Positions 22,291 through 46,440 of a DNA stretch of 64,000 nucleotides are shown here, in pieces. Under the pieces are notes generated by a model that was not told the origin of the DNA, searched no databases, and saw only the letters and a program-made list of their open reading frames with translations. The stretch comes from Agrococcus terreus (GTDB lineage Bacteria > Actinomycetota > Actinomycetes > Actinomycetales > Microbacteriaceae): the NCBI RefSeq assembly GCF_014645235.1, contig NZ_BMLM01000001.1:682001-746000 (forward strand). The letters run 5' to 3'. The stretch's first letter is position 1. Every line of letters begins with the position of its first letter. The position numbers and the translations under genes are program-made.

Positions 22291-22365
22291 GCCTCTGTAG
22301 CTCAATGGAAGAGCATCTCCGTCCTAAGGAGCTGGTTGGGGGTTCGAGTCCCTCCAGGGGCACCA
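22291..22365 (+). tRNA. tRNA-Arg(CCT)
   Basis: Acceptor arms GCCTCTG/CAGGGGC, D-arm TAGCTCAATGGAAGAGC, anticodon loop GTCCTAA (anticodon CCT), T-arm around GGTTCGAGTCC, discriminator A and encoded CCA. TAGGAT at 22274 is a likely -10. It decodes AGG. Confidence 0.95.
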
Positions 22366-22474
22366 CGCCGGCGCGGGGGCGCGCCGCATCCCGCCGCTAC
22401 GATCGACCGCGGTGCCGCCGCATCCCGATGCCCGCACCACCACGCAGCAGCCACCCACGCAGAGAGCGAGCGAG

Positions 22475-23524
22475 ATGAGCGCGACCGAGCCGAAGCCCTT
22501 CCGCACCACCGACGGGACGGCCTGGGACGCGCAGGTGCTCGAGGGCCAGGACCGCGGCCACTACATGCAGTCGGACGCGTGGGCCCGCACCCGCGAGGAG
22601 TCGCCGTGGCGGGGACTCCGCGACGTCGTGCCGGTGCCCGCCGAGGGCCGCGAGCTGCCGATCCAGCTGTTCGAGCGCACGGCGCCGCTCGCCGGCCGCA
22701 TCATCTTCCTGCCGCGCGTCAGCGGCATCACGCCCGCCGCGGTCGACGCGATCACCGCACGCGCGAAGGCCTACCCGAAGCGCTGGTTCGGGCTGAAGAT
22801 GGAGACCTTCCAGGCCGAGACGCCCGAGCTCGTCGAGGCCTTCGAGCGCAACGGCTGGGTGCCGGCCGCGTCGAGCCAGTACCAGCACGCCGTCGCGGTC
22901 GACCTCACCGGCACGCTCGACGAGGTCGCCGCCCGCTTCAAGAAGCGCGCCCGCAACTCCTACCGCGCCGCCGAGAACAAGTTCGGCGTCACCGTCACAA
23001 AGGTCGAGATGACGCCCGAGAACGAGGCGGAGATGCACCGCCTCATCGGCGAGACGAAGGTGCGCTCGGGCGGCTACTTCCGCCACCCGGAGTACTTCCA
23101 GCGCATCTGGGACGTCTACAAGACCGTCGGCCAGGGGCACTTCTACGTCGCACACTACGAGGGCGAGGTGCAGTCGATGGCGTTCGTGATCCGCTTCGGC
23201 GACACCGCCTGGTACAAGGACGCCGGCAGCATCCGCGAGAACGCGAAGATCTTCGCGCCGTACCTGATGCAGTGGAAGATCATGCAGGACCTCCACGAGC
23301 AGGGCGTCACCCTCTACGAGCTCGCCAACATCCCCGACCCGGCGTCGTGGGAGACGAGCGACATCAAGGGCCTCTACACGTTCAAGACCGCGTGGGCGCC
23401 CGAGCCGGTGCGCTACATGCCGACCTACGAGCTGCCGCTCACCGGCCGCTACGCGCTGTGGGCGAAGGCCGGCCGCTGGCTGCGCGCCGTCTACACGCGC
23501 CGCACCGGCGACGCCTGGTTCTAG
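22475..23524 (+). CDS. FemAB/FemX-family aminoacyltransferase
   Basis: A 349-residue cytosolic enzyme of the FemAB group, which adds amino acids from aminoacyl-tRNA to the peptidoglycan precursor (interpeptide bridge). Two GNAT-like halves are visible: the N-terminal half has HYMQSDAWARTREESPWRG and the second begins near FKKRARNSYRAAENKFGV, followed by YFRHPEYFQRIWDVYK, YVAHYEGEVQSMAFV and KIFAPYLMQWKIMQDLHEQGV. These are characteristic of actinobacterial FemX-like proteins. GAGCGAGCGAG lies before ATG. The actual bridge residue cannot be read from the sequence. A tRNA-Arg gene just upstream is probably coincidental. Confidence 0.92.
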   Translation: MSATEPKPFRTTDGTAWDAQVLEGQDRGHYMQSDAWARTREESPWRGLRDVVPVPAEGRELPIQLFERTAPLAGRIIFLPRVSGITPAAVDAITARAKAYPKRWFGLKMETFQAETPELVEAFERNGWVPAASSQYQHAVAVDLTGTLDEVAARFKKRARNSYRAAENKFGVTVTKVEMTPENEAEMHRLIGETKVRSGGYFRHPEYFQRIWDVYKTVGQGHFYVAHYEGEVQSMAFVIRFGDTAWYKDAGSIRENAKIFAPYLMQWKIMQDLHEQGVTLYELANIPDPASWETSDIKGLYTFKTAWAPEPVRYMPTYELPLTGRYALWAKAGRWLRAVYTRRTGDAWF

Positions 23525-23606: not shown

Positions 23607-26600
23607 GTGCGTGAGGACGAGGACGAGACCCGGGGCGAGGTGCCCGAGGCGCTGATCGACCCCGCCGGCGAGCACGACGACCGCGTGACGGGCGACGACC
23701 TCGACGACGCCGCTCCGGCGGAGGACGAGGGCGCGCCCCTCCACCTCGGCCCCGACCGCTCGCGCACCGGCGCACCGGCCCCCGCCTCGCCGCCCGCGCC
23801 GCCGTCGCGGCGGCAGGGGGAGTGGCAGGCATGGGCGGATGCGCTGCGGCGCGTCGGCGGCCGCAGTCCGCTCACCGATTTCATCGACACGACCGCGACG
23901 CGCGTCGAGCTCTCGACCACGCACCCCGGCGGGCTCGCGCAGTTCATCACCGGCCGGCCGACGGCGCTGTCGAGCCTCATCCGCGACGACCTCGCCCTCC
24001 GCGCCGCCCGCTCGGCCGCCGCATCGATCGCCTCCAAGGGCATCGAGCTCGCCGCCGCCCGCTCGATCGACGCCGTGCACCTCGGCATCGGCATGGCGCG
24101 CTTCCCGCGCGGCGATCGCGAGGTCTACGGGCCCGTCCTGCTGCGCCCGCTCATCGTGCGCCGCCGCGGCCGCGACTTCGAGCTGCAGCTGCTCGGCCAG
24201 CCGTTCCTCAACCCGCGCATCGCCCGCATCCTCCGCGAGGAGCACGGCGTGCGCCTCGACGACCGGCAGCTCGTCGAGCTCGCCTCGGGCGAGGGCACCT
24301 TCACGCCCAACGCGGTGCTCGACGCCGTGCGGCTCGCCGCCGCCCACGTGCCCGGGTTCGCGCTCGAGGCGCGGCTGCTCGCCTCCACGTTCGCCGACGT
24401 GGGCGAGCCGATGGCCGCCGACCTCGAGCAGCAGCCGCACGACGTGCTCGACGCCGTGCGCGGCGACGAGCAGGCCGCCTGGCGGGTGCGCGAGGGCCGC
24501 AACGGCATCGACGAGACGCCGCAGGACCAGCGCGACCCCGAGGTGGACCGGCTCGTGCTCGACGCCGACGGCGAGCAGGACGCGGTGATCGCCGAGGCGG
24601 GCGCCGGCAACTCCATCGTCGTCGAGGCGCTGCCCGGCACCGGCCTCACGCAGACGATCGTGAACGTCGTCGCCGCGCTCGTCGGCGACGACAAGCGCGT
24701 GCTCGTCGTGAGCCCGCGCCGCGCGACGCTCCGCGACATCGCCGACCGGCTCGCGGCGACGAAGCTCGAGGCGCTCGCCGTCGGCGAGGCGACCCTCCGC
24801 CGCGACCTCATCGCCGCCATCCGTCGCATCGAGCGCACCGAGCGCCCGGACACCGGCGAGATCGACGAGGCGATGCTGCGCCTGCGCAAGGTGCTGCTCG
24901 ACTACCGCGCGGCCCTGCGGCGCGTGGACGGCGAGCTGCAGGTCTCGGTGCTCGACGCCCTGAAGGAGCTCTCGCGCCTCGCCATGCTGCCGACGCCGCC
25001 GTCGACGCGCGCGCGGCTCTCGGAGGCGTCCACGCGGGCGCTCGCCACCGACCGTCCGCGCGTGGCCGCCACGATGCGGAAGGCGGCCGAGCTCGGCCAG
25101 TTCCGCTACGGCCCGAGCGACACCCCCTGGTACGGCGCGACGTTCGCGAGCTCGGCCGACGCATCCACCGCCTACGCCGACGCCGGCGAGCTCGACCGCG
25201 AGCTGCTGGGCGCGCTCGTGGAGCAGGCGCGCGAGGTCGTCGGCTCGACGAAGCTGCGGCCCGCCGCGACGCTCGCCGAGCTCGGCATCCAGGTGGCGCT
25301 GCTCACCGACGTGCGCTCGACCCTCGACGTCATGACGCCCGGCATCTACGACCGCCCGCTCGGCGAGCTCATCACCGCCACGGGCCCGCGCCGCGAGGCG
25401 CTGCAGGCGCTCGGCGCGATGCAGCGTCGCCGCCTGCGCAAGCTCGCCGAGGAGTACGTGCGCCCCGGCGCGCACGTGCCCGACCTCCACGACGTGCTGC
25501 TCGCCGCGCAGCAGCAGCGGCGCCTCTGGGCGAAGTTCGCGCCCGACGGCTCCATCCCGTCGGTGCCCGCGGGCCTCGCGGCGCTCGAGGCGCGCCTGCG
25601 CGACGTCGTCGCGCGGCTCGACCGGCTCGACGCGGGCCTCACGCCCGACGCGCGCAGCGTCGACCTGCCGCTCGACGAGCTGCGCGACCGCGTCGCGACG
25701 CTCGCGGCGCCCAGCGACGCCCTCCAGAACATCCAGGAGCGGGCCGAGCTCATGGGCTCGATCGAGCGCCTCGGCCTCGACGCGCTGCTCGCCGACCTCG
25801 CCGACCGGCACGTCGCCGACGACGAGATCGAGCACGAGCTCGACCTCGCCTGGTGGCAGTCGGCGCTGCAGGCGATGCTCGGCCGCGAGCGTGCGCTGCT
25901 GCGCGGCAACACCGAGGTGCTCGGCCGCCTCGAGCAGGACTTCGCGCTCGTCGACGAGGCGCACGTCGACGCCTCGAGCGCCCGCCTCGCGCACCAGCTC
26001 GCCGAGCAGTGGCGGCTCGCGATCGACGACCACCCCGACGAGGCGCAGGCCGTGCGGCAGCTCATCCGCGCCGGCGGCGTCGCCTCCGACGAGCTGCAGC
26101 GCCACGCGCCGCACCTCACGCGCGCCGTCGCCCCCGTCTGGCTCGCCTCGCCCTACGACCTGCACCGCGTGACGCGCCGCATCCCCTTCGACGCGGTCGT
26201 GCTCGCCGACGCGGGCGCCATCACGATCGCCGAGGCCGCGGGCGCCATCAGCCGCGCGCGCCAGGTGATCGCGCTCGGCGACTCGACGACGCAGACCCCC
26301 TCGCCGTTCGACGTCGGCATCTCGACGCTCGGCGTGCGCCCCAGCGAGGAGCTCGCGACGCCCGACGAGCTGCACGCGGAGTCGGCGCTCTCGCGCCTCG
26401 GCCAGGTGCTGCCGAGCCGTCGCCTCACCCGCTCGTACCGCACGGGCGGCGCCGACCTCGTCGCGGCCGTCAACGACCGCTTCTACGAGGGCCGCATCGA
26501 GGCGCTGCCGTGGGCGGGCACGTACCTGGGCCACGCATCCCTCACCGCCTCCGTCGTGCACGGCGCCCACGGCCTGCCCGAGCAGGGCATGGCGACGGTC

Positions 26601-27383
26601 GAGAGCCCGGATGCCGAGGTCGACCGCGTCGTGCAGCTCGTCGTGCAGCACGCGCGCTCGCGCCCGCAGGAGTCGCTCATGGTCGTGACGGCCAACGAGC
26701 GGCACGAGGTGCGCATCCAGCAGTCGATCATGGCCGCGCTCGCCGCGAGCGGGCCGCTCACGGACTTCGTCGTCGCGGACCGCGAGGAGCCCTTCGTCGT
26801 CGTCGACGTGACGCACGCGAGCGCGCTGAGCCGCGACCGCGTGATCTTCTCGGTCGGCTACGGCCACACGAAGCACGGCCGCAACGTCGACTTCGGCTCG
26901 CTGGGGGAGCCCGGCGGCGAGCGGCTGCTCGCGGTCGCGATGACGCGCGCCCGCAAGGCGATGCAGATCATCACCTCGTTCGACGCGGCGGAGCTCGACC
27001 CGGAGCGGCTCGCGCACGGCGCGGCCCAGCTGCGCGAGATCCTGCTCGACGCCGCATCGCCCCAGCGGCCGCAGCAGCGCTTCGGCGGCGACCCGCTCAT
27101 GGTCGACCTCGCCGCGCGCCTGCGCCGCCGGGGGCTGCGCGCCGACGTCTCGTACGACGGCGCGCTGCCGCTCGTCGTCGCGAACGGCGGCGTGTGCGCG
27201 GCCATCGAGGCCGACCACGACGACGGCGACCGCACCCTGCGCGAGGCGCTGCGGCTGCGGCCCGAGGTGCTGCGCCGGTTCGGCTGGCACACGATGCGTG
27301 TGCACGCCTTCGAGCTGTTCACCGACCCGGAGGCCGTCGCCGATCGCATCGCGGAGCTCGTCGGCGCCGACGCGGCGCGGTGA
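23607..27383 (+). CDS. DUF4011/AAA helicase-like protein with degenerate ATPase motifs
   Basis: A 1258-residue protein. An acidic disordered N-terminus (1-70) precedes DUF4011 (about 75-230, beginning WADALRRVGGRSPLTDFI). An Upf1/AAA_11-12-like SF1 helicase architecture follows: P-loop region about 335-355, motif II region about 862-885, LTRSYRTGGADLVAAVND (motif IV) and VAMTRARKAM (motif VI). A C-terminal restriction-endonuclease-like part spans about 1160-1245. Walker A reads LPGTGLTQT with Leu347 where Lys is expected, and motif II reads LADAGA with Ala869 where Glu is expected, so ATP hydrolysis is doubtful. The GTG is leaderless behind TATCGT. Its TGA overlaps the next GTG. The true role is unknown; defence or repair is possible. 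Confidence 0.85.
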   Translation: MREDEDETRGEVPEALIDPAGEHDDRVTGDDLDDAAPAEDEGAPLHLGPDRSRTGAPAPASPPAPPSRRQGEWQAWADALRRVGGRSPLTDFIDTTATRVELSTTHPGGLAQFITGRPTALSSLIRDDLALRAARSAAASIASKGIELAAARSIDAVHLGIGMARFPRGDREVYGPVLLRPLIVRRRGRDFELQLLGQPFLNPRIARILREEHGVRLDDRQLVELASGEGTFTPNAVLDAVRLAAAHVPGFALEARLLASTFADVGEPMAADLEQQPHDVLDAVRGDEQAAWRVREGRNGIDETPQDQRDPEVDRLVLDADGEQDAVIAEAGAGNSIVVEALPGTGLTQTIVNVVAALVGDDKRVLVVSPRRATLRDIADRLAATKLEALAVGEATLRRDLIAAIRRIERTERPDTGEIDEAMLRLRKVLLDYRAALRRVDGELQVSVLDALKELSRLAMLPTPPSTRARLSEASTRALATDRPRVAATMRKAAELGQFRYGPSDTPWYGATFASSADASTAYADAGELDRELLGALVEQAREVVGSTKLRPAATLAELGIQVALLTDVRSTLDVMTPGIYDRPLGELITATGPRREALQALGAMQRRRLRKLAEEYVRPGAHVPDLHDVLLAAQQQRRLWAKFAPDGSIPSVPAGLAALEARLRDVVARLDRLDAGLTPDARSVDLPLDELRDRVATLAAPSDALQNIQERAELMGSIERLGLDALLADLADRHVADDEIEHELDLAWWQSALQAMLGRERALLRGNTEVLGRLEQDFALVDEAHVDASSARLAHQLAEQWRLAIDDHPDEAQAVRQLIRAGGVASDELQRHAPHLTRAVAPVWLASPYDLHRVTRRIPFDAVVLADAGAITIAEAAGAISRARQVIALGDSTTQTPSPFDVGISTLGVRPSEELATPDELHAESALSRLGQVLPSRRLTRSYRTGGADLVAAVNDRFYEGRIEALPWAGTYLGHASLTASVVHGAHGLPEQGMATVESPDAEVDRVVQLVVQHARSRPQESLMVVTANERHEVRIQQSIMAALAASGPLTDFVVADREEPFVVVDVTHASALSRDRVIFSVGYGHTKHGRNVDFGSLGEPGGERLLAVAMTRARKAMQIITSFDAAELDPERLAHGAAQLREILLDAASPQRPQQRFGGDPLMVDLAARLRRRGLRADVSYDGALPLVVANGGVCAAIEADHDDGDRTLREALRLRPEVLRRFGWHTMRVHAFELFTDPEAVADRIAELVGADAAR

Positions 27384-27634
27384 GCGGCGAGCAGAGTCCG
27401 GGGGAGCAGTCGGCGCCTGAGGCGGCGGCCGAGGCGGCCGCCGAGCCTGCGGCCGAGCCAGCTGCGGCCGAGGCGCCGGATGCGGCGCCCGCCCCGCTCG
27501 TCATCCGTCGCCGCGGGCGTCGCGTGACGACGGAGCCGTCGCCCGGCTGGATCGGCGAGCCCGAGCAGGAGCGCACCCAGTCGCGCGAGAACGACGACCG
27601 CCTGCGCGGCGACGTGCCGCCGCACTGGGGCTGA
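27380..27634 (+). CDS. Small hypothetical protein ending in DVPPHWG
   Basis: An 84-residue soluble protein. An Ala/Glu-rich N-terminus (1-40) is followed by APLVIRRRGRRVTTEP and a distinct C-terminal stretch ENDDRLRGDVPPHWG, a tail I associate with small conserved proteins of Microbacteriaceae. Its GTG overlaps the stop of the DUF4011 gene (GTGA), so it is translated as part of that operon. No domain or localisation signal is seen. It could be an accessory subunit of the large protein; that is inference from coupling. Confidence 0.75.
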   Translation: MSGEQSPGEQSAPEAAAEAAAEPAAEPAAAEAPDAAPAPLVIRRRGRRVTTEPSPGWIGEPEQERTQSRENDDRLRGDVPPHWG

Positions 27635-27663: not shown

Positions 27664-28179
27664 CCCGCTGGTCGAGGAGCTGCCGGCGCAGCCGGCCGCG
27701 TCTCGAGACCACCAGCGCGGCGGGGCGTCCGCAGTGCTGTGGCTTCGACTCGCTCAGCGCGCTGCGCGCGCGGAGCGGCTCGACCAGCGGGAACGCCCCC
27801 GCTGGTCGAGGAGCTGCCGGCGGAGCCGGCCGCGTCTCGAGACCGCCGCGTGGCGAGCTGCTCGCCGTGCTGTGGTTTCGACACGCTCAGCGCGCTGGGC
27901 GCGCGGAGCGGCCCAACCAGCGGGTGGCTCGTCCGCTGGTCGAGGAGCTGCCGGCGGAGCCGGCCGCGTCTTGCGCGCGGTTCGCCGTCCTGTGGTTTCG
28001 ACACGCTCAGCGCGCTGCGCGCGCGGAGCGGCCCAACCAGCGGGTGGCTCCCCCGCTGGTCGAGGAGCTGCCGGCGGAGCCGGCGGCGTCTCGAGACCAC
28101 TGCGCGGCGCCCCGTCCGACATGCAGTGGTTTCGACTCGCTCAGCCGCCTGCGGCGGCGGAGCGGCTCAACCAGCGGGT
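27664..28179. repeat. Four tandem units of an inverted intergenic repeat
   Basis: The 590-base gap between 27635 and 28224 holds no gene. Four copies of a left half beginning CCGCTGGTCGAGGAGCTGCC (27666, 27800, 27934, 28054) alternate with four copies of a right half containing GGTTTCGAC, CGCTCAGC and ending in ACCAGCGGG. The halves are imperfect reverse complements sharing the termini CGCTGGTCGAG and TCGA(G/A)ACCAC, so each unit can fold back. The spacing is 134, 134 and 120 bases. It looks like a REP/MITE-type actinobacterial intergenic repeat. Confidence 0.85.
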
Positions 28180-28224: not shown

Positions 28225-28638
28225 CTACGGGGCAGGCGAAGCGGGCGGGGCCGCCGGGTTCGCGTCCGCCTGCTGCTCGCGCAGCAGGTCGCGGATGTCG
28301 CGCAGCACGTCGACGTCGGTCTCGGCCGGCTCCTCGGGCGTGACGCCGCGCAGGCGGTCGTGCGCCTCGGTGAGCTTCTGCATCGGGAGGATCAGCACGA
28401 AGTAGCAGATCGCCGCGATGATGAGGAAGTTCAGCACGGCGGCCAGCACGAGGCCGATCTTCACGCCGCCGACCTCGAACGCCTCGAGCTCGTCGACCTG
28501 GAACGCGTTCGCCAGCAGCGGGTTGATGATCGCCTCGGTGAACGCGGCGACGATCCCCGTGAACGCGGTGCCGATGACGACCGCGACGGCCAGCTCGACC
28601 ACGTTGCCGCGCATCAGGAAGTTCTTGAAGCCCTGCAT
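28225..28638 (-). CDS. mscL: Large-conductance mechanosensitive channel MscL
   Basis: A 137-residue homopentameric membrane channel that opens under osmotic down-shock. Gate helix TM1 is GNVVELAVAVVIGTAFTGIVAAFTEAII, given here as residues 11-38, with the usual N-terminal MQGFKNFLMRGN. TM2 is about residues 62-86 (VLAAVLNFLIIAAICYFVLILPM region) and the C-terminal helix LRDIRDLLREQ is present. Length is normal. GAGGATCC lies upstream of ATG. It is downstream of the FmdB gene on the same strand, with a 39-base gap, so they may be co-transcribed. Confidence 0.96.
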   Translation of the reverse strand: MQGFKNFLMRGNVVELAVAVVIGTAFTGIVAAFTEAIINPLLANAFQVDELEAFEVGGVKIGLVLAAVLNFLIIAAICYFVLILPMQKLTEAHDRLRGVTPEEPAETDVDVLRDIRDLLREQQADANPAAPPASPAP

Positions 28639-28677: not shown

Positions 28678-28902
28678 TCAGTCGGACGAGCCGCCACCGC
28701 TGCTCGCGGTGGTCTTCGAGGCGCTCGCGCGCGAGTCGGTGCGGTAGAAGCCCGCGCCGTTGAAGGTGACGCCGACGGCGCCGTACTGCTTGCGCAGCGC
28801 GCCGCCGCACTGCTCGCAGACGGTGAGCGAGGGCTCGCTGAACGACTGCCGGGCCTCGAACGCGTGGCCGCAGGTGGTGCAGGCGTAGGCGTAGGTGGGC
28901 AT
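28678..28902 (-). CDS. FmdB-family zinc-ribbon protein
   Basis: A 74-residue protein with a single zinc ribbon of two CxxC pairs, CTTCGHAFE and CEQCGGALRK, starting with the family signature MPTYAYAC. It ends in a Ser/Thr/Gly tail. The family (FmdB/CxxC_CxxC_SSSS) is widespread, and its role as a regulator is putative. AGGAG in the last codons of the cyclo-ligase gene serves as ribosome site, and only two bases separate that stop from this ATG, so the genes are coupled. Confidence 0.92.
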   Translation of the reverse strand: MPTYAYACTTCGHAFEARQSFSEPSLTVCEQCGGALRKQYGAVGVTFNGAGFYRTDSRASASKTTASSGGGSSD

Positions 28903-28904
28903 GG

Positions 28905-29504
28905 TCAGCTCCTCGGAGTCAGGGTCAGGATGCCGGACGGGGTGACGACGCCGTCGACGGGCTGGTCGTACGCGGCGTGCGGCACGGAGTCGAAGAGCTC
29001 CTCGTCGTGCACGATCGCGTACACCGGTGGACATTCTGCCATCGCGGCGATCGTCCTGTCGAAGAATCCGCGGCCGCCGCCGATGCGGGAGCCGTCGCGG
29101 CCGACCGCGGTGGCGGGGATGAGCATGAGGTCGACCTCGTCGAGCGCCGTCGGCGGCAGCGCGTCGCCGGTCGGCTCGGGCATCCCGAGGGTGTCCTCGA
29201 TCGCCTCGGTGCCGTCGTGCTCGGCCCAGTCGAGCAGGCCGTCGGTGCGGATGATCGGCAGCAGCACCCGGAGGCCCTCGGCCTCCGCCCAGCGCAGCAG
29301 GCCGCGGGTGTCGGGCTCGCCGGGCAGCGACAGGTAGGCCGAGACGGTGCGCGCCCCGAGGGTGCGCACGAGGTTCACGAGGTGCGCGGTGAGCGCTTCG
29401 GAGCCGGCGGCCGAGAGCGTCGCGCCCTGCTCGGCGCGGGCGGTGCGCAGGCGCCGCCGCAGGGCTCGCTTGGCGTCCTCGATGGCTGCCTCGTCCTCGC
29501 TCAC
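28905..29504 (-). CDS. 5-formyltetrahydrofolate cyclo-ligase
   Basis: A 199-residue folate enzyme converting 5-formyl-THF to 5,10-methenyl-THF with ATP. The N-terminal Arg-rich helix KRALRRRLRTARA binds phosphate. YLSLPGEPDTRGLL and GDALPPTALDEVDLMLIPATAVGRDGSR are typical, and IGGGRGFFDR is the conserved GxGxGxxDR nucleotide loop. The GTG start follows TAGCCT by 7 bases, so it is leaderless. It heads a three-gene run with the FmdB gene and mscL. Confidence 0.94.
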   Translation of the reverse strand: MSEDEAAIEDAKRALRRRLRTARAEQGATLSAAGSEALTAHLVNLVRTLGARTVSAYLSLPGEPDTRGLLRWAEAEGLRVLLPIIRTDGLLDWAEHDGTEAIEDTLGMPEPTGDALPPTALDEVDLMLIPATAVGRDGSRIGGGRGFFDRTIAAMAECPPVYAIVHDEELFDSVPHAAYDQPVDGVVTPSGILTLTPRS

Positions 29505-29511
29505 GGGTGCG

Positions 29512-29517
29512 AGGCTA
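29512..29517 (-). promoter_or_regulatory. -10 hexamer TAGCCT of the cyclo-ligase gene
   Basis: Minus-strand TAGCCT, 7-base gap, GTG at 29504. Confidence 0.5.
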
Positions 29518-29594
29518 TCGCGGCGCCCTGGCCGGCCGTCCCCGCCGGGCCGCGCTCGCCGCCGCGGCGCGCGCCTCCGTGCGGCGGCGGGCCA

Positions 29595-29600
29595 TAGGCT
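29595..29600 (+). promoter_or_regulatory. -10 hexamer TAGGCT of the RimJ-like gene
   Basis: TAGGCT, 7-base gap, GTG at 29608. It decides between two in-frame GTG codons (29602 and 29608). Confidence 0.5.
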
Positions 29601-29607
29601 CGTGCTC

Positions 29608-30267
29608 GTGTTCGACACCGCGCCACGGCTCAGCAGCGGCGCCGTGAGCGTGCGCGGCATCCGGATGCGCGACGCGAAGGCGCTCGAGGCCGAGCTCGTC
29701 GGCAACCGGCAGTGGCTCGAGCCGTGGGAGGCGACGCTGCCCGGCTCGCGCTCGAGCGGCCGCTTCGACACCCGGTCTTCCATCCGCTCCCTGCTCGAGA
29801 GCGAGCGCGACGGCACGGGCCTCGCCTTCGCGATCGAGGTCGACGGGCAGTTCGCGGGGCAGCTGAACGTGGCGGGCATCAGCGGCGGCGCGCTCTCGTC
29901 CTCGACGATCGGCTACTGGGTCGCGCAGCGGTTCGCGGGCCGCGGCGCGACGCCGACGGCGGTCGCGCTCGTCGCCGACCACCTGCTCGGCCCGGCCGGC
30001 CTCCACCGGGTGGAGATCTGCATCCGGCCCGAGAACGAGGCGAGCCTGCGCGTGGTCGAGAAGCTCGGCTTCCGCTACGAGGGGTGCCGCCGCCGCTACA
30101 TCCACATCGACGGCGACTGGCGCGACCACCTGTGCTTCGCGCTCGTGCGCGAGGAGCTCGCGGAGTCGATCCTGGAGCGCTGGCAGGGTGGCCGGGTGCC
30201 GCCGTTCGACCGCTCCGTCTACCCCGTGCCGGTCGGCGGCGACCCGCGGCGACGACCTTCGCGCTAG
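29608..30267 (+). CDS. GNAT N-acetyltransferase, RimJ/RimL type
   Basis: A 219-residue acetyltransferase of the ribosomal-protein-alanine type. Conserved parts include GNRQWLEPWEATLP, YWVAQRFAGRGATPTAVALV (acetyl-CoA loop with RGxA), LHRVEICIRPENEASLRVVEKLGFRYEG and the C-terminal HIDGDWRDHLCFAL. RimJ acetylates the N-terminal Ala of ribosomal protein S5 in E. coli; the target here is inferred only to be a protein N-terminus or amine. The second of two GTG codons was chosen from the -10 spacing. Confidence 0.9.
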   Translation: MFDTAPRLSSGAVSVRGIRMRDAKALEAELVGNRQWLEPWEATLPGSRSSGRFDTRSSIRSLLESERDGTGLAFAIEVDGQFAGQLNVAGISGGALSSSTIGYWVAQRFAGRGATPTAVALVADHLLGPAGLHRVEICIRPENEASLRVVEKLGFRYEGCRRRYIHIDGDWRDHLCFALVREELAESILERWQGGRVPPFDRSVYPVPVGGDPRRRPSR

Positions 30268-30329: not shown

Positions 30330-30335
30330 TACCGT
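30330..30335 (+). promoter_or_regulatory. -10 hexamer TACCGT of the coiled-coil membrane protein gene
   Basis: TACCGT, 7-base gap, ATG at 30343. Confidence 0.5.
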
Positions 30336-30342
30336 GCAGGGC

Positions 30343-31461
30343 ATGCCGGAGTTCGCAGGTCTCGGGACGACACTCGTCCTCGTCGTCGCCGTCGTGCTCT
30401 GGATCGCGTACCTGGTGCCGGTCTGGACGCGGAAGCGCGAGTACCTGGCGACCGAGCGCAACGCCATCCGCCTGCAGCAGACGCTGCGCATCATGGCCGA
30501 GTCGGCGGAGGCGCCCGAGGAGGTCCGCATCGAGGCCGACGCCCGCACGATCGCCGTGCAGCAGCGCGCGGTCGCGAAGGAGGCGCGCCTCAAGCAGGCG
30601 ATGGAGCACGCGAAGGCCGTCGCCCGCGCCCGCGAGCTCGACGACCAGATCAAGGCGGTCGAGCGCGAGGTGCGCGCGGCCGTCCGCACCACCGTCTCGC
30701 GCGCGCAGCGCCTGCGCCGCACGCGGCTCGCGTGCTTCGCGCTCGTCGTCGCGGCGATCGCCGCGGTCGTCGCCGGCGCGCTCGTGCCGGGCCTGCAGCT
30801 GCTGCTCGTCGCCGGCGGCGCGGTCGCCGTGCTGGGCGTCGCGGGCCTCGTGGCCGTGAACGCCTCCGCAGCCCGGATGCGCGTCGTCGCGGCGCGCACC
30901 GCGCCGAGCGTCCGCACGCTCGTCGAGGCTCGCGCGGTGGCGGCGCAGGCCGTCGCCGCCGAGGAGCGCATCGCCGAGCACGTCGTGGCCCGAGCCGGCC
31001 GCACCGAGGAGCTGCTGCGCTCGCGCTCGTGGACGCCCGCGCCGGTGCCCGAGCAGCGCGCCGCGCCGCAGCACCGGGTCGGCGACGACCTGCTGCAGCG
31101 GGCCCGCGCGCAGCTCGCCGAGGACCGCCGCGCGCTCTCCGGGCCGCTCGCGCGCGTCTCGCGCATCAGCTTCGACGAGCTCGTCACGGGCGAGGTGCCC
31201 GACACCGACATCGAGCGGCGCCTCGCGCCCACCGCGCCCGCCGTGCCGATCCGTCGCGTCGAGGTGGGGGAGGCGGTGGAGGCCGCCGTCGCGCTCGACG
31301 TGGTGCGGGCGGAGGATGCGGCGGCTGCGCCCGCTGCGGAGGCGCCCCCGGCACCCGAGCCGGCGAAGCGCGCGCCGTCGCGGTTCGCGGCGATGGGTGT
31401 CATCGAGGACGACCTCGACGGCATGGACGTGCAGGCGGCCTTCCGCCGCCGCGTCGGCTGA
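30343..31461 (+). CDS. Conserved membrane protein with coiled coil
   Basis: A 372-residue protein of unknown function. Helix 1 lies at about 9-25 (TLVLVVAVVLWIAYLVP) followed by a basic WTRKREYL; a long charged coiled coil spans about 35-125; a hydrophobic hairpin of two helices lies at about 128-175; a second helical segment and a Pro/Ala-rich tail end in FRRRVG. AAMGVIEDDLDGMDVQAAFRRR is a conserved C-terminal box I have seen in Microbacteriaceae proteins of this shape. ATG is placed by the leaderless hexamer; an upstream in-frame GTG overlaps that hexamer. The topology suggests an envelope scaffold, but no function is established. Confidence 0.75.
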   Translation: MPEFAGLGTTLVLVVAVVLWIAYLVPVWTRKREYLATERNAIRLQQTLRIMAESAEAPEEVRIEADARTIAVQQRAVAKEARLKQAMEHAKAVARARELDDQIKAVEREVRAAVRTTVSRAQRLRRTRLACFALVVAAIAAVVAGALVPGLQLLLVAGGAVAVLGVAGLVAVNASAARMRVVAARTAPSVRTLVEARAVAAQAVAAEERIAEHVVARAGRTEELLRSRSWTPAPVPEQRAAPQHRVGDDLLQRARAQLAEDRRALSGPLARVSRISFDELVTGEVPDTDIERRLAPTAPAVPIRRVEVGEAVEAAVALDVVRAEDAAAAPAAEAPPAPEPAKRAPSRFAAMGVIEDDLDGMDVQAAFRRRVG

Positions 31462-31628: not shown

Positions 31629-31704
31629 GGGCCCATGGCGCAGTTGGTAGCGCGCTTCGTTCGCAATGAAGAGGTCGGGGGTTCGAATCCCCCTGGGTCC
31701 ACCA
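31629..31704 (+). tRNA. tRNA-Ala(CGC)
   Basis: Acceptor arms GGGCCCA/TGGGTCC with one G-T pair, D-arm TGGCGCAGTTGGTAGCGC, anticodon loop TTCGCAA (anticodon CGC), T-arm GGGGG TTCGAAT CCCCC, discriminator A and encoded CCA. It decodes GCG. Confidence 0.95.
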
Positions 31705-38381: not shown

Positions 38382-39392
38382 TCAGCCCCGGTAGCCGCGC
38401 GGGTTCGCGGACTGCCACCGCCATGCATCGGCAGCGGCGTCCTCGAGCGATCGCGCGGCCCGCCAGCCGAGGCGCTCGTGCGCGAGCGACGGGTCGGCGG
38501 TGCTGACCGCGGCGTCGCCCGGCCGCCGTGCGACGACCTCGTGCGGGAGGGCCCGCCCGACCGCGGCCTCGAACGCGGCGAGCACCTCGCGCACGCTCGC
38601 GCCGCGACCGGTGCCGAGGTTGACGGTCAGCACCCCGGGCTCGAGGGCCTCGAGCGCGGCGACGTGGCCCTCGGCGAGGTCGACGACGTGGATGTAGTCG
38701 CGGACGCCCGTGCCGTCGGCCGTGGGGTAGTCGTCGCCGAAGATCCGCAGGCGCTCGCGCTCGCCGCTCGCCACCTGCGCGATGAAGGGCGCGAGGTTGT
38801 TCGGGATGCCGTGGGGGTCCTCGCCGATGCGGCCCGACTCGTGCGCGCCGATCGGGTTGAAGTAGCGCAGCACCGCCGCCTCGAGCGCCGGGTCGGCGGC
38901 CGCGGCGTCGGCGACGACCGCCTCGATCATCGCCTTCGTGCGCCCGTAGGGGTTCTCGAGCGCGATGCCGACAGGGGCGTCCTCGCGGAGGTCTGGCCCG
39001 GGCTGCTCGTACACGGTGGCCGACGAGCTGAACACGAAGCGGCGCACCCCGTGCTCGGCCATCGCCTCGAGCGTCGCGACCGCCGAGCCGACGTTCACGC
39101 GGTAGTACTCGAGCGGCTTCGCCACCGACTCGCCGACGGCCTTCCTGCCGGCGAAGTGGATGACGGCCTCGATGCGGTGCTCGGCGAGCAGGCGGCCGAC
39201 GAGCTCGCGGTCGCCGGCGTCGCCGACGACGAGCGGGATCTCGCGCCCGGCGAGCTCGGACGCGCGCCGCACGGCCTCGGCGCTGGCGTTCGAGAGGTCG
39301 TCGAGCACCACCGGCTCGTGCCCGTGCGCGATGAGCGCGATGGCGGTGTGCGATCCGATGTACCCGGCTCCGCCGGTGAGCAGCACGCGCAT
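38382..39392 (-). CDS. galE: UDP-glucose 4-epimerase GalE
   Basis: A 336-residue extended short-chain dehydrogenase interconverting UDP-glucose and UDP-galactose. The NAD loop is TGGAGYIGSH; catalytic residues are Ser in VFSSSATVYEQ and Tyr/Lys in NPYGRTKAMIE. PNNLAPFIAQVASGERERLRIFGDDYPTADGTGVRDYIHVVDLA (shown in fragments: PNNL, GDDYPTADGTGVRDYIHV) contacts the sugar nucleotide. GGAGGACGGGAG lies just before ATG. It supplies galactosyl donors for the polysaccharide locus to the right. Length is normal. Confidence 0.96.
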   Translation of the reverse strand: MRVLLTGGAGYIGSHTAIALIAHGHEPVVLDDLSNASAEAVRRASELAGREIPLVVGDAGDRELVGRLLAEHRIEAVIHFAGRKAVGESVAKPLEYYRVNVGSAVATLEAMAEHGVRRFVFSSSATVYEQPGPDLREDAPVGIALENPYGRTKAMIEAVVADAAAADPALEAAVLRYFNPIGAHESGRIGEDPHGIPNNLAPFIAQVASGERERLRIFGDDYPTADGTGVRDYIHVVDLAEGHVAALEALEPGVLTVNLGTGRGASVREVLAAFEAAVGRALPHEVVARRPGDAAVSTADPSLAHERLGWRAARSLEDAAADAWRWQSANPRGYRG

Positions 39393-39471
39393 GGATCTCC
39401 CGTCCTCCGATGCCGTCGCCAGCCTACTGGCGCCGTGGCGCGCGGGACGTCGTCCGGCCTCGCACGACCGG

Positions 39472-39489
39472 CGCCGGGGATGCCCGGCG
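39472..39489 (-). terminator. Small hairpin after the HAD gene
   Basis: 7-bp stem CGCCGGG with GATG loop, 8 bases beyond the HAD phosphatase stop on the minus strand; a modest terminator candidate. Confidence 0.4.
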
Positions 39490-39497
39490 TGCGCTCG

Positions 39498-40253
39498 TCA
39501 GGCGCGCTCGAGCAGCTCCTCGATGATCTGCACCGTGTGCTCCCAGCCGGTCACGGCGAGCGTGGGCACGCCCGTGCCGACGACCGGGTAGTCGTTGCCG
39601 TCGGGGTCGAGGCGGTCGCCGATGAACAGCATGTCGGTGAGCGGGATGCCGGTGGCGATCTCGAGCTTGCGCATGCCGTAGGCCTTGTCGATCCCGCGGC
39701 GCGTGATGTCGACCGACGTCGAGCCGCCCGAGCGGACCTCGAGGTCAGGCACGTCGAGGGCGACCGCGTCGCGCAGGCGGCTCTTCTTCTCGCCGGTGGG
39801 ATCCCACGCGGTCTTCGCGTCGACGGGCGCCGACTGCCCGAGGGCCGAGAACGTCACCTGGGTCTGGCGGTCCTCGATGCGAGGGCCCCACGTCTCGGGC
39901 TCCCACAGGCCGAGCTCCTTGGCGCGGCGCTCGACCGCCTCCGAGGCGCGATCGATCTCGTCCTGCGTCAGCAGCTCCGCGTACACGCGCTGCCACTCGC
40001 CGTCGACGGAGCGGAAGTACTGCGTGCCGCAGGTGGGCATCAGGTGGAGGTCCTCGAGGCCCGTCGCGCCGGCCGCCGTGAGGGGCTCGACGACCTGCTT
40101 CTGGAACTGCGCGTAGTTGCCGCCGGAGATGATGCAGACCGGCGTGCTCGCGACGAGGCGGCCGAGCGCCTCGATCATCGGCTGCTCGAGCGGCGACTTC
40201 GAGGGGGCGAGGGTGTCGTCGAGGTCGAAGGCGATGAGGGCGGGGAGCGGCAC
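39498..40253 (-). CDS. HAD-IIB phosphatase (phosphomannomutase/sucrose-phosphatase-like)
   Basis: A 251-residue haloacid-dehalogenase hydrolase with a C2B cap. Motif I is LIAFDLDDTLA, motif II is IISGGN, the Lys of motif III is in RGIDKAYGM, and motif IV is FIGDRLDPDGNDYPV. The cap has MPTCGTQYFRSVDGEW. Members include eukaryotic-type phosphomannomutase and sugar phosphatases; a mannose/sugar-phosphate role fits the galE neighbourhood. The start is GTG at VPLPALIAFDLDDT, with AGGA upstream; no other start lies close to the fold. Exact substrate unknown. Confidence 0.88.
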   Translation of the reverse strand: MPLPALIAFDLDDTLAPSKSPLEQPMIEALGRLVASTPVCIISGGNYAQFQKQVVEPLTAAGATGLEDLHLMPTCGTQYFRSVDGEWQRVYAELLTQDEIDRASEAVERRAKELGLWEPETWGPRIEDRQTQVTFSALGQSAPVDAKTAWDPTGEKKSRLRDAVALDVPDLEVRSGGSTSVDITRRGIDKAYGMRKLEIATGIPLTDMLFIGDRLDPDGNDYPVVGTGVPTLAVTGWEHTVQIIEELLERA

Positions 40254-40403
40254 AGGGGGTCCTGACGGAGGGGAGCGGGGGACGGGCGACCACGATACCG
40301 TCGGCCGGCCGGTGCTGGAGAATGGGGGCCGCCCGGGCCGTCCATGACGGATTCCTCGACGGCAGCACAGGGAAGCCTCGGCCGGAGGGTGCGCGGGGCG
40401 GGC

Positions 40404-40409
40404 TATCGT
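40404..40409 (+). promoter_or_regulatory. -10 hexamer TATCGT of phosphatase paralogue 2
   Basis: TATCGT, 6-base gap, ATG at 40416; the same hexamer and gap as paralogue 1. Confidence 0.55.
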
Positions 40410-40415
40410 CGGCCC

Positions 40416-41084
40416 ATGCCCCCGGTGAGCCGTCGCGAGACCGAGCTCGACGGCGCGTCGGCGCCCTTCGAGGTGCTGGTCGTGTGCACCGGCAACCTCT
40501 GCCGCTCGCCCCTGGCGGCGCTGCTGCTCGAGGCGCGGCTGCCGGGCGCTGCGGGCCTGCCCGGACGGGGGCTGCGCGTGGCGAGCGCCGGGACGCTGGC
40601 GCGTCCGGGCGCGCCGATGGATCCGGCTGCGGCCGTCGAGGCCGCGCGACTCGGGCTCGACCCGTCGGCGCATCGCGCCCGCCGGCTCTCCGCGCAGGCG
40701 GTGGAGCGGGCGGACCTGGTCGTCGGGCTCGCGCGCGAGCATCGGGCGGCCGCGGTGCGGCTCGCCCCTGCGGCCGTGCGGCGCGCCTTCACGCTGCTCG
40801 AGCTGGCGGACCTCCTGCGAGGCCTGCCCGTGGAGGGCGCGGTCGCGTCAGCGTCGGAGGACCCGGCCACCCGGCTGCGCAGCCTCGTGGAGGCCGCGGC
40901 CATGCGCCGCTCGCTCGCGCCGCTCGACGACCCGCACCGGATCGACGTGCCCGATCCGTACCGGCGCGGCGCGGCCGCCTACGGTCGGTCGGCGCGCGAG
41001 ATCGCCTCGGCGATCGATGGCGTCGAGGGCGCGATCCGCCGGCTCGTCGCGGATCCGCTCGCCCTCCGAGGTCACGGCGCGTAG
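40416..41084 (+). CDS. Low-molecular-weight protein-tyrosine phosphatase
   Basis: A 222-residue LMW-PTP with an intact P-loop VCTGNLCRSP (nucleophilic Cys, second Cys, Arg, Ser) and the general acid in IDVPDPYRRG. It is longer than typical Wzb-type enzymes because of an N-terminal extension (1-18) and an insert between about 130 and 165. It is expected to dephosphorylate a polysaccharide-assembly tyrosine kinase or wall-teichoic regulator; no such kinase is in the window. It is paralogous to 36963. Its end overlaps the end of the convergent LCP gene by 13 bases. Confidence 0.92.
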   Translation: MPPVSRRETELDGASAPFEVLVVCTGNLCRSPLAALLLEARLPGAAGLPGRGLRVASAGTLARPGAPMDPAAAVEAARLGLDPSAHRARRLSAQAVERADLVVGLAREHRAAAVRLAPAAVRRAFTLLELADLLRGLPVEGAVASASEDPATRLRSLVEAAAMRRSLAPLDDPHRIDVPDPYRRGAAAYGRSAREIASAIDGVEGAIRRLVADPLALRGHGA

Positions 41085-42073
41085 GACGTGCCGAAGCGCT
41101 CCACGTAGGGCTGGATGTCGCCTGCGCGGAGCGCGTCGCCCAGCGCAGCGGTCTGCGCCGCGTCGACCTCGTTGACCGACTGACCGCCGCGGCTGCCGAA
41201 GCCCTCGATGGGCGCCATGAGGCTGACGACGTCGTCGCGCTCGAGGTCCTGGCTGATGCTCGCGAGCGCGATCATGTCGTCGATGCTGAGCTCGCCCGTG
41301 ATCTTGAGCCGGCCCGCGAAGTGGCCGAAGAGCTCGGGCAGCGCGCCGGGGTCGTCGGTCGCGATCTCGTCGATCCGCTCGAGCATGCCGATCACGGCGG
41401 CGCGCTGCCGCTCGGCGCGGTCGAGGTCGCCGAGGGGCAGGCCCTTGCGCTGGCGCACGTAGATGAGGCCGTCGGTGCCGGAGAGGTGCACCGGGTCGGC
41501 GGTGAGGTCGACGACGCGGCCGGTGCTCTGCACGGTCACCCGCGTGGGGTGCTGGTTCTCGGCGTCGAAGCCGTCGAGCGCGCGCGTGAGGCCGATGAAG
41601 CCCTCGAAGTCGGCCTGGACGACGTAGTCGATGTCGATGCCGCCGAAGAGCCCGGAGACGGTGTCGCGCATGAGCGGCGTGCCGCCGATCGCGAAGGCGG
41701 CGTTGATCTTGCCCTCGCCGGCGCCTGGGATCGCGACCCAGGTGTCGCGCGTGATCGAGACGAGCGTGAGCGACTGCCGGTCTGCGGAGATCTGCGCGAG
41801 CATGATGGCGTCGGCGTTGCCGGTCATCGCGCCCGGGGTGCGCGAGTCGGTGCCGAGCAGGAGCGCGGTGACCGCGCCGTCGGGGAGCGGATCGGCGGGC
41901 TCCGTCGGCGTCGGCGTCGGGGCGGGCGCCGTGGGGCTGGGGCGTGCGTCGGCCGTCGCGGTGGGCGTCGGCTGCGGCTCCGCCTCCGGGCCGCACGCCG
42001 ACAGGGCGAGCACGGCCACGACGGCGCCTGCGAGGATCGTGCGCGCTCGGCGCGTCCCGGTCCGGTGGGTCAT
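41072..42073 (-). CDS. LytR-CpsA-Psr (LCP) family lipoprotein transferase
   Basis: A 333-residue LCP enzyme that transfers lipid-linked glycopolymers to peptidoglycan. The lipobox LSAC sits at about 24-27, then a Pro/Thr-rich linker to 60. The LCP domain has LLLGTDSRTPG, DAIMLAQISADRQSLTLVSITRDTWV (in two parts: DAIMLAQ and LVSITRDTWV), GKINAAFAIGG and VRQRKGLPLGDLDRAERQ with the catalytic Arg/Asp set. A lipoprotein signal is less usual than a membrane helix in this family. AGAGGA 6 bases before ATG decides the start among three in-frame Met codons. It probably anchors the capsule made by the locus to the right. Confidence 0.92.
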   Translation of the reverse strand: MTHRTGTRRARTILAGAVVAVLALSACGPEAEPQPTPTATADARPSPTAPAPTPTPTEPADPLPDGAVTALLLGTDSRTPGAMTGNADAIMLAQISADRQSLTLVSITRDTWVAIPGAGEGKINAAFAIGGTPLMRDTVSGLFGGIDIDYVVQADFEGFIGLTRALDGFDAENQHPTRVTVQSTGRVVDLTADPVHLSGTDGLIYVRQRKGLPLGDLDRAERQRAAVIGMLERIDEIATDDPGALPELFGHFAGRLKITGELSIDDMIALASISQDLERDDVVSLMAPIEGFGSRGGQSVNEVDAAQTAALGDALRAGDIQPYVERFGTSYAP

Positions 42074-42113
42074 GCTGCGTCCTCTCGCTGGGGCCATCGT
42101 GGTGCGGGGCGGG

Positions 42114-43634
42114 TCAGGCGTCGGCATCCACCAGGCCCGCCGCGAAGCGGTAGACCTCGGCCGATTCGCGCTGCGGCTTGGGCAGCGACAGCGCCGCCAC
42201 GAGGAGCCGCCGCGAGCTCAGCACCGGGGCGGGCGTGGTGGCGAGGTCGTACTCGGCGTACCCGGCGCCGCCCCACTTCGTCATGCGGTGCTCCCAGTGG
42301 TACAGGTCGTAGAAGTCGTAGCCGCGGAGGCGGTCGACCGAGAACCCGGTGTGGTCCATCCAGCGCGCGAGCTCCTCGTGCAGCTGCGGGTCGCGGTGGA
42401 AGGCGGAGTCGGTGTACTTCGCGGCGAGCAGCTCGGGGCGCAGGTGCCGGTCGGAGGTGTCGCGCCACATGCCGGTGATGATGGCGCCGCCGACGCCGAA
42501 GATCGTCGACGCCTTGGCGGGGGAGTGCAGGTAGAGGGCGTTCGCGAGGTTCGCGTAGCGCTGCCAGGCGGGGAAGGTGGCGCCGTAGAGCCGTGCCATC
42601 GCGGAGCCCGGCTTCATGGGAGCCACGTCGATGCCGAGGTGCGGCAGCCCGGCCGCGGCCGAGATCCTGCCGGCCGAGAGCATGTCGTCGTAGGTGCTCT
42701 TCCTGGCGAAGTGGAACGGGTGGTAGGTCATCGTGAGCGCGTCGGCCGCCTGCAGGTCGGGCAGGCCGGCCTCCAGGATCGCGCGGGAGTCGCGGCCCGC
42801 GGTGAGGGTGAGCACCGTCACGGGCGAGACGTCGATCCAGCTGCGGATCTGTCGGCGCAGGTCGTCGACGAAGCGCTCGCCTGCCTCCTGGGTCGTGAGC
42901 TCGGCGCGGTCGGCGGCCGGGAAGAACCGCTCGCCGGTGACCGCGGTGCCCTCCACGGTGAGTCGCTGGTTCGCGTAGATCTGGCCGACGCCGTCGTGGG
43001 GCGTGATGAGCCCCGGCAGCCAGCGGCCGGCGGGCGAGCGGTAGTCGGGGTGGTCGAGCACCCAGCGGAGGCGGCTGCTGTCGAGCCCGCCGGCGAGCTC
43101 GGCGAGCAGGGCGGAGTGCGAGGCGAGGGCGACGCCGTGGTCGCCCCGGCGCCAGTAGAGCGAGCGTGTGGCGAGCGGGTCGCCCCAGGCGTCGAGCCGG
43201 TCGCCGCGCGCGACGAGCACGACGTAGCGGCCGGACAGCCAGGTGACGGCCTCGTCGAGGGCAGCCGTCTGGGCCGTTTCGCCGCCCGGCGCGTCGGCGG
43301 CCCGCAGCAGCCGCTCGGCGACGCGATGCCGCGTGCCCGCGCCGCCGTCGTCGAAGGCATGGCCGAGCACGAGCACCGCGGCGCTCGCGGATCGGGCGGC
43401 GGCATGCTCCAGGACCGGATCGCGTCGGATGTGCCAGGAGCCGAGCGCCTCGTCGACCCACCGCTGCGGTCCCACCGTCGTCGGCGCGCGCGTGACGAGG
43501 AACCCCTTGGCGAAGTCGTTCGTGTAGCCCCACACCTTGTAGCCGGGCCGGAGCAGCTGCTCGCGGCGCCGCATGCCCTGCAGCGCGATGCGCCGTCGTC
43601 GCTCGTCGCGGTCGCGGCGCAGGCGATCGAGCAT
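42114..43634 (-). CDS. Asparagine-synthase-like PP-loop protein 1
   Basis: A 506-residue protein with the build of class B asparagine synthase. An N-terminal region (about 30-225) resembles the glutaminase fold (YVVLVARGDRLDAWGDPLATRSLYW) but starts MLDRL, so no catalytic Cys follows the Met; ammonia release from Gln is unlikely. The C-terminal synthetase has LTLTAGRDSRAILEAG, an ATP PP-loop with Ala-Gly-Arg in place of Gly-Gly-Leu. GAGGGG precedes ATG by 5 bases. It is adjacent to VanZ and LCP genes on the same strand. Role probably amide or peptide-bond formation on an envelope glycan; substrate unknown. Confidence 0.82.
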   Translation of the reverse strand: MLDRLRRDRDERRRRIALQGMRRREQLLRPGYKVWGYTNDFAKGFLVTRAPTTVGPQRWVDEALGSWHIRRDPVLEHAAARSASAAVLVLGHAFDDGGAGTRHRVAERLLRAADAPGGETAQTAALDEAVTWLSGRYVVLVARGDRLDAWGDPLATRSLYWRRGDHGVALASHSALLAELAGGLDSSRLRWVLDHPDYRSPAGRWLPGLITPHDGVGQIYANQRLTVEGTAVTGERFFPAADRAELTTQEAGERFVDDLRRQIRSWIDVSPVTVLTLTAGRDSRAILEAGLPDLQAADALTMTYHPFHFARKSTYDDMLSAGRISAAAGLPHLGIDVAPMKPGSAMARLYGATFPAWQRYANLANALYLHSPAKASTIFGVGGAIITGMWRDTSDRHLRPELLAAKYTDSAFHRDPQLHEELARWMDHTGFSVDRLRGYDFYDLYHWEHRMTKWGGAGYAEYDLATTPAPVLSSRRLLVAALSLPKPQRESAEVYRFAAGLVDADA

Positions 43635-43683
43635 GGGGTCCCCTCGGTCGGCGGCCCGCCCGAGACGAGTCGTCCTCAGGAGG

Positions 43684-46206: not shown

Positions 46207-46236
46207 GCGCTCAGGCCAGCGCCTTACGCTGACCGC

Positions 46237-46434: not shown

Positions 46435-46440
46435 GCGGTC

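What the first reader, a model, noticed from the sequence alone, without database searches (positions are those of the whole stretch)
23607..27383. DUF4011 SF1-helicase-like protein with both catalytic ATPase residues replaced
Walker A reads PGTGLTQT (Leu347 instead of Lys) and motif II reads LADAGA (Ala869 instead of Glu), while the helicase frame and arginine motif TRARKAM remain. A 1258-residue protein kept intact with a coupled small partner argues for selection on a non-ATPase function, possibly as nucleic-acid clamp or defence protein.
Basis: seen in the sequence. Interest (0 to 1): 0.62.

Follow-up and report, generated by a model that had tools for sequence, protein, structure and literature searches.

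The report
Order-wide core pseudo-helicase with tail partner
A large helicase-and-nuclease-like bacterial protein has lost the residues expected to burn ATP and cut DNA, yet nearly every sampled member of its order keeps it, usually at the same chromosomal spot and with a small conserved tail protein beside it or fused to it, so it probably does an important job without being an enzyme.

Summary
The 1258-residue ORF is real and intact. Walker A Lys is Leu347 as reported; motif II was read one residue out of register (Walker B Asp is Ala867, catalytic Glu is Asp868). The losses are family-wide: in 98 Microbacteriaceae rows Lys, Asp and Glu are each 0 of 98, while most P-loop neighbours stay nearly invariant. 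The C-terminal MTES_1575-type nuclease domain has lost catalytic positions too. It does not look like an accessory defence gene: matches occur in 149 of 150 family and 97 of 99 order genomes, mostly at one conserved locus, under purifying selection (codon-model omega about 0.05). Only 5 of 180 aligned order sequences (families f5, f18) keep K, D and E, at the same locus. The coupled 84-aa partner ends in a conserved tail (PPHW or PPHY). Across 180 order loci this element is a separate downstream ORF (142) or is fused to the large protein's own C-terminus (24), never both; 9 show neither, 5 are cut off by contig ends. So the two very probably work together. Best reading: an anciently inactivated DUF4011-SF1 helicase-nuclease turned core non-enzymatic protein, perhaps a nucleic-acid scanner or scaffold like RecC/AddB; that function is inferred.

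The parts
23607..27383 (+). large DUF4011 / SF1-helicase-like / MTES_1575-type-nuclease-like protein, 1258 aa, catalytically degenerate
   Evidence: relatives
23814..24536 (+). N-terminal DUF4011-like region, residues about 70-310 (limits approximate); holds order-wide conserved W76, G162, P176, N202
   Evidence: DUF4011 seen in relatives, not in the query itself; conservation
24633..24656 (+). degenerate Walker A, PGTGLTQT, residues 343-350; Leu347 stands for Lys
26187..26219 (+). degenerate motif II, FDAVVLADAGA, residues 861-871; Ala867 stands for the Walker B Asp, Asp868 for the catalytic Glu
26943..26954 (+). motif VI TRAR, residues 1113-1116, retained (R1116 in 96 of 98)
27099..27356 (+). 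C-terminal MTES_1575-type REase domain (limits approximate), degenerate: Asp positions 1188 and 1215 lost, E1201 and D1203 kept
27380..27634 (+). small coupled partner, 84 aa, ending ENDDRLRGDVPPHWG; its GTG overlaps the TGA of the large gene
   Evidence: order-wide separate or fused
28225..28638 (-). MscL, part of the conserved downstream neighbourhood
28678..29034 (-). zinc-ribbon ORF, FmdB-like (name recalled, no family scan was run), part of the conserved downstream neighbourhood
28905..29879 (-). ORF holding 5-formyltetrahydrofolate cyclo-ligase, part of the conserved downstream neighbourhood
22412..23524 (+). upstream neighbour, FemAB-type protein; this cluster was seen in 9 of 129 loci, all family loci

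Best explanation
This is the Microbacteriaceae form of an order-wide core protein that descends from an active DUF4011 - SF1 helicase - MTES_1575-type nuclease (ProA/PDC-S37-like). In most families its ATPase and nuclease sites decayed while the rest stayed under purifying selection. Shown here: homology, loss of catalytic residues in a retained frame, near-ubiquity, a mostly fixed chromosomal place, purifying selection in Agrococcus, and a tail element that is either a separate coupled ORF or fused to the large protein. Inferred: the tail acts with the large protein in one complex; the protein now works without ATP hydrolysis or cutting, as a nucleic-acid scanner or scaffold comparable to the inactivated helicase domains of RecC and AddB, with the PPHW tail as a contact for another factor. 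What it binds and which process it serves are not known.
For: Lys347 0 of 98, Asp867 0 of 98, Glu868 0 of 98 (Asp in 97), while Q324, G344, G346, Q349, N353, R945 and R1116 are 96-98 of 98. Column 347 is at the 68th and 867 at the 54th percentile of variability; 344, 346, 349 and 353 lie at 0-3. Matches in 149 of 150 family and 97 of 99 order genomes. The five active order copies have the same downstream MscL and FmdB-like genes as dead ones and all have the tail, four separate and one fused. Tail element: separate 142, fused 24, both 0, neither 9, cut off 5 of 180 order loci, against 24 of 14379 control ORFs ending in PPH; fused forms occur in f1, f6, f10, f14, f16, f18 and f19. Omega 0.056 and 0.052; neighbouring FemAB gene 0.039. 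All 8 longer ProA-like paralogues examined have GTGKSQT and DEASQ, so an active ancestor is likely. Precedent for an inactivated SF1 helicase domain used as an ssDNA scanner: AddB/RecC (PMC4824097, passages).
Against: No binding, ATPase or nuclease data. Both AlphaFold models failed (mean pLDDT 38.7 and 43.0), so the fold rests on sequence profiles, which are below the Pfam cut-offs for the query. Catalytic columns are not uniquely lost: among 200 columns identical in six active rows, E868 is kept at 0.04 in dead rows, but F967, S946, H943, I375 and I351 are at 0.00-0.05 too, and D867 is at 0.39. R945 is lost in f3, f4, f9, f10, f14, f15 and f20 and in 4 of 6 rows of f12, Q324 in all 6 rows of f4 and part of f3, f10 and f12, so no nucleotide-bound state can be required everywhere. 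The smallest family genome (L041) shows neither partner nor tail. Nothing links the protein to a RecB/AddA-type enzyme; PF12705 matches were found in 5 of 6 genomes tested, which is no link.
Confidence: 0.5

Rival explanations
1. It is still an enzyme: Asp868 stands in for the catalytic Glu, the P-loop binds phosphate without Lys, and E1201/D1203 support nuclease activity.
For: In 98 family rows Asp868 97, D1203 98, E1201 75 Glu plus 22 Asp, R945 98, R1116 96.
Against: Walker A Lys and Walker B Asp are both gone in all 98 rows; in other dead families position 868 is often Ala, Gly, Val or Ser; nuclease positions 1188 (1 Asp of 22 rows) and 1215 (0 of 22) are lost in the family.
Confidence: 0.15
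2. It is a core antiphage protein that senses or blocks phage nucleic acid without catalysis.
For: The nearest named families are antiphage or candidate antiphage: ProA 8.7e-87, Hhe 3.5e-35, PDC-S37 5.9e-92.
Against: Scores are far below the NCBIfam cut-offs (292 of 1500; 120.8 of 2000). Near-universal and mostly at a fixed locus, also in a 927-kb genome.
Confidence: 0.2
3. It regulates or antagonises an active ProA-like paralogue in the same cell.
For: Some genomes carry a second, longer frame with GTGKSQT and DEASQ (for example G154, G162, G172).
Against: The window's genome has one match only at E 0.001.
Confidence: 0.05
4. It is a pseudogene in progress.
For: Loss of catalytic residues. 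One aligned orthologue, L177 of f12, is split over two frames, and unaligned G135 and G112 show short frames of 1089 and 840 aa.
Against: The other aligned orthologues are single open frames apart from those cut by contig ends; codon-model omega about 0.05; substitutions shared by the whole family.
Confidence: 0.01

Closest known systems
ProA (NCBIfam NF058533) and PDC-S37 (PADLOC)
   Same: Homologous over about residues 653-1253; the active orthologue L118 scores 789.9 bits to ProA.
   Different: 292 bits against a cut-off of 1500; about 650 residues shorter than the ProA model; catalytic residues lost; near-universal in the order; PPHW partner or tail.
Hhe (NCBIfam NF042953, DUF4011 antiphage protein)
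   Same: Shared segment, residues 689-1131.
   Different: 120.8 bits against a cut-off of 2000; catalytic residues lost.
MTES_1575 of Microbacterium testaceum (PMC3710099, passages seen)
   Same: SF1 helicase plus the same Vsr-type REase family (PF18741).
   Different: By the passages it reaches at least residue 2161 and carries HEPN, transglutaminase and wHTH domains; one search lists none of these for this protein.
RecC and AddB (PMC4824097, passages seen)
   Same: Works-like comparison only: SF1 helicase fold without most motifs, kept in a core protein and used as a scanner.
   Different: Homology at family level was not tested; no RecB/AddA-type partner shown; different nuclease family.
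Core DUF4011 gene flanking Pseudomonas aeruginosa cDHS1 (PMC10250203, passages seen)
   Same: A large DUF4011 gene in every isolate, next to a conserved small hypothetical gene.
   Different: Not compared by sequence here; its catalytic state was not examined.

Membership tests
ProA antiphage protein (NF058533) | score at or above the curated cut-off of 1500 bits | tested here: not met
   292 bits; the active orthologue L118 has 789.9
Hhe antiphage protein (NF042953) | score at or above 2000 bits | tested here: not met
   120.8 bits
PDC-S37 (PADLOC candidate) | match to the model | tested here: inconclusive
   E 5.9e-92, best stretch 655-1253 on positions 730-1339 of 1550; no cut-off given
SF1 helicase (active) | Walker A Lys | tested here: not met
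   Leu347; 0 of 98 family rows
SF1 helicase (active) | motif II Asp-Glu | tested here: not met
   Ala867-Asp868; 0 of 98 Asp, 0 of 98 Glu
SF1 helicase (fold) | Q motif, P-loop glycines and motifs III, IV, VI in order | tested here: met
   by sequence only; Pfam helicase models stay below cut-off for the query and no confident structure was obtained
MTES_1575 REase domain (PF18741) | score at or above the gathering cut-off 38.2 | tested here: not met
   27.5 bits; 33 of 39 relatives match at E 0.01 or better; active orthologue L118 70.7 bits
DUF4011 (PF13195) | match to the domain | tested here: not met
   no hit for the query at E 1 or better; 25 of 39 relatives; active orthologue L118 27.3 against cut-off 22.2
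Accessory defence gene | patchy presence in variable islands | tested here: not met
   149 of 150 and 97 of 99 genomes; conserved neighbours in most families, not in f11, f12
RecC/AddB-type scanner | subunit of a RecB/AddA-type helicase-nuclease that reads a DNA signal | not testable with these tools
   needs biochemistry; analogy only

The most novel reading that the evidence does not exclude
An order-wide core machine built on a dead helicase-nuclease with a PPHW tail supplied in trans by a coupled small protein or in cis by fusion, which reads or holds a nucleic-acid feature without ATP: a RecC-like function evolved separately from an antiphage-type helicase.
Probability: 0.3. Interest if true: 0.85.

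Novelty: new variant of a known kind. Interest (0 to 1): 0.72.

Why it matters
A 1200-residue pseudoenzyme kept by nearly every sampled member of a bacterial order, down to a genome under 1 Mb, points to an important function with no known mechanism. Active and dead versions sit at the same locus with the same tail element, and that element switches between separate gene and fusion, which gives a natural series for testing how a defence-type helicase-nuclease can become a non-enzymatic core protein.

Tried and rejected
Structure: two AlphaFold jobs, on alignments limited to the window and nine search for related loci Agrococcus loci, gave mean pLDDT 38.7 and 43.0; no fold search was run on them. 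Searches of solved structures gave only weak matches, mainly SF1 helicases of the NAM7/IGHMBP2/UPF1 kind, with malate dehydrogenase entries also listed.

Register: the first parsimony run scored position 869 as the catalytic Glu and so showed 0 of 110; redone at 867/868, where 8 of 110 have Glu and 6 of 110 Lys.

Partner: my first filter found a separate partner at 139 of 180 order loci and I took L041-L047, f10 and others to lack it. A looser look showed the tail fused to the large protein in 24 of them and three separate copies missed by the filter (L083, L163, L171, the last partly masked by N); one search gives the final count. L191 has a weaker candidate (LPPHF) and is counted as neither. 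One fusion, L065, could also be a sequencing error.

Selection: codon-model fits of segments 311-430 and 1160-1258 printed exactly 1.000, which I take as an unfitted start value because pairwise NG86 gives 0.247 and 0.064; this is a judgement. The cyclo-ligase control (6.331) is invalid since I cut the ORF out of frame, and the DtxR control had too few sequences. NG86 omega for the whole gene is 0.267, higher than the codon model.

Tree: the rooted tree needs at least two irreversible losses of Lys, one inside f18 and one below the other dead families; slowly evolving active rows may be drawn to the root, and f25 and f38 of other orders fall inside, so this is a lower bound. Different motif II routes (Asp lost with Glu to Asp in f1, f6, f7, f12; Asp kept with Glu lost in f4, f9, f14, f20 and most of f3) suggest further separate decay.

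Rows dropped: L012 (same contig range as L004), L101-L107 and L131-L134, L142, L143 (repeats of genomes already held), L126 (partial, used for the partner only), L123 left out of the trees (near-copy of L122), L169, L177, L189 and L246 left out of the rooted tree. The 98 family rows are the window, 9 named Agrococcus loci and 88 of the 147 other matching family genomes. 82 of the 90 matching non-family order genomes were aligned. Of order families, f13 has only a partial row and f17 none in the motif table. In one search L126 was counted under f1 by default; searches put it in f13.

Literature: searches of the open-licence PMC library; judged from the listings and passages of three papers (PMC3710099, PMC10250203, PMC4824097), none describes this inactive family. 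Subscription journals were not searched.
Full report
Observation. The ORF 23607-27383 (+) is one open frame of 1258 aa in a 2.83-Mb genome. Nine of the ten loci found in named genomes are Agrococcus, 82-86% identical in the best segment. Leu347 stands at the Walker A Lys. Motif II must be shifted by one: aligned without gaps to active orthologues and to NAM7/IGHMBP2, Ala867 stands at the Walker B Asp and Asp868 at the catalytic Glu. Motif VI is kept.

Domains. The query matches MTES_1575 REase and SF1 helicase models weakly and below their cut-offs, and ProA at 8.7e-87, Hhe at 3.5e-35 and PDC-S37 at 5.9e-92. The active orthologue L118 passes the Pfam cut-offs for DUF4011, AAA_11, AAA_12 and MTES_1575, and so does L225, the f45 copy. 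This suggests the ancestral architecture DUF4011 - RecA1 - insert - RecA2 - nuclease.

How fixed is the loss. In 98 Microbacteriaceae rows position 347 is G54 L14 A10 Y6 S5 V5 I2 T1 R1, 867 is V55 L26 A12 M3 I2 and 868 is D97 G1. Around them G344 is 98, G346 97, Q349 97, N353 97, Q324 97, R945 98 and R1116 96 of 98; T345 is less kept, 80 of 98. The nuclease keeps D1203 (98 of 98) and E1201 (75 Glu, 22 Asp, 1 Gln) but has lost positions 1188 (1 Asp of 22 rows) and 1215 (0 of 22).

How widespread. Matches at E 0.001 were found in 149 of 150 family genomes, 85 of 85 genera, and in 97 of 99 order genomes, 52 of 53 genera. The misses are G094 (82% complete), G202 (62%) and G216 (92%). In a class-wide sample 34 of 98 genomes gave some match, many short or to longer frames; matches over the whole profile, in one or two pieces, were limited to the six order members drawn, 5 of 5 genomes of f38, 1 of 1 of f25 and 1 of 5 of f45. 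The 927,303-base genome G015 keeps a 1175-aa open frame; from memory that length is Tropheryma whipplei Twist's, which no call confirmed.

Active and dead orthologues. Of 187 aligned sequences (98 family, 89 others) six keep Lys, Asp and Glu: L118 and L119 (f5), L120, L130 and L219 (f18), and L139 (f45, outside the order); so 5 of 180 within the order and 2 of its 18 families in the motif table. The five order copies have MscL and the FmdB-like gene downstream as the dead ones do. The f45 copy has none of the five marker genes and no partner or tail. Eight longer ProA-like paralogues all have GTGKSQT and DEASQ, so an active ancestor is likely. On the rooted tree at least two losses of Lys are needed.

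Specificity. Of 200 columns identical in the six active rows, median retention in 104 dead rows is 0.70. K347 has 0.00, but dead rows were defined by its absence. E868 has 0.04, D867 0.39, D1188 0.23; a few columns without known catalytic role are as low (F967, S946, H943, I375, I351). Retention is 0.98 or more at G153, G162, P176, N202, W508, A591, R607, L631, G723, P843, D862, G1104, G1138 and D1203.

Selection. Codon-model omega among ten Agrococcus sequences is 0.056 (1205 codons) or 0.052 (1190 codons), against 0.039 for the neighbouring FemAB gene and 0.107 for the ORF at 30334-31461. NG86 gives 0.267 overall.

The partner and the tail. A strict filter (ORF of 35-260 aa ending in PPH within its last 13 residues, start codon from 80 bases before to 300 after the stop) found a separate partner at 139 of 180 order loci; 24 of 14379 control ORFs in the flanks end so. 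More than one ORF per locus was tried, so the chance per locus is a few times the control rate. Taking the earliest start codon, 118 of 140 begin no later than 5 bases past the stop. One search adds what the filter missed: in 24 further order loci the large protein itself ends in the tail, for example EDTDIAWGDRGDSNDMRLEQDKPPHWG in L042. Final count in the order: separate 142, fused 24, both 0, neither 9, cut by a contig end 5. Fused forms occur in f1 (8), f6 (3), f10 (6), f14 (3), f16 (2), f18 (1) and f19 (1). Outside the order f38 has it separate in 5 of 5, f25 and f45 not. The nine with neither are L041, L166, L182, L191, L192, L195, L214, L220 and L233. That one element is found either in trans or in cis, never both, is strong evidence that it acts with the large protein. 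The separate forms scanned had no convincing Pfam or NCBIfam match.

Neighbourhood. Of 67 family loci with 3 kb downstream, 65 have the cyclo-ligase, 51 the FmdB-like gene, 49 GalU (name recalled) and 45 MscL. One or more markers follow in most other families, but not in f11 (1 locus) or f12 (5 loci), and in few of f20.

Mechanism. The likeliest reading is a non-enzymatic nucleic-acid protein with an obligatory tail. The precedent is AddB/RecC, where inactivated SF1 helicase domains are proposed to scan ssDNA (PMC4824097, passages). Every functional step beyond sequence is inference.

Noticed in passing
27664-28178: Four copies of a GC-rich repeat, spaced 120-134 bases and with inverted arms, lie between the partner and MscL. 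Its 22-base core occurs 54 times in the genome at up to 3 mismatches (14 exact) against 13 for the reversed control.
   Followed up: partly
38382-55344: A polysaccharide gene cluster (epimerase, glycosyltransferases, UDP-sugar dehydrogenase, DUF6270); from about 46 kb on the GC is 63-71% against 70-78% before.
   Followed up: no
L241, L243, L244, L247, L248: Longer paralogues of about 2000-2430 aa with an intact ATPase site have a degenerate C-terminal nuclease-like segment, so nuclease decay also occurs in ATPase-active relatives.
   Followed up: no
L179 and L211 (f18): Orthologues that keep Glu868 but have lost Lys (V, M) and Asp867 (L), possible intermediates of inactivation.
   Followed up: no
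L177 (f12): The orthologue is split over two overlapping frames, a frameshift or a sequencing error.
   Followed up: no
22291-22365, 31629-31704: tRNA-Arg(CCT) and tRNA-Ala(CGC) genes lie on either side of the region.
   Followed up: no
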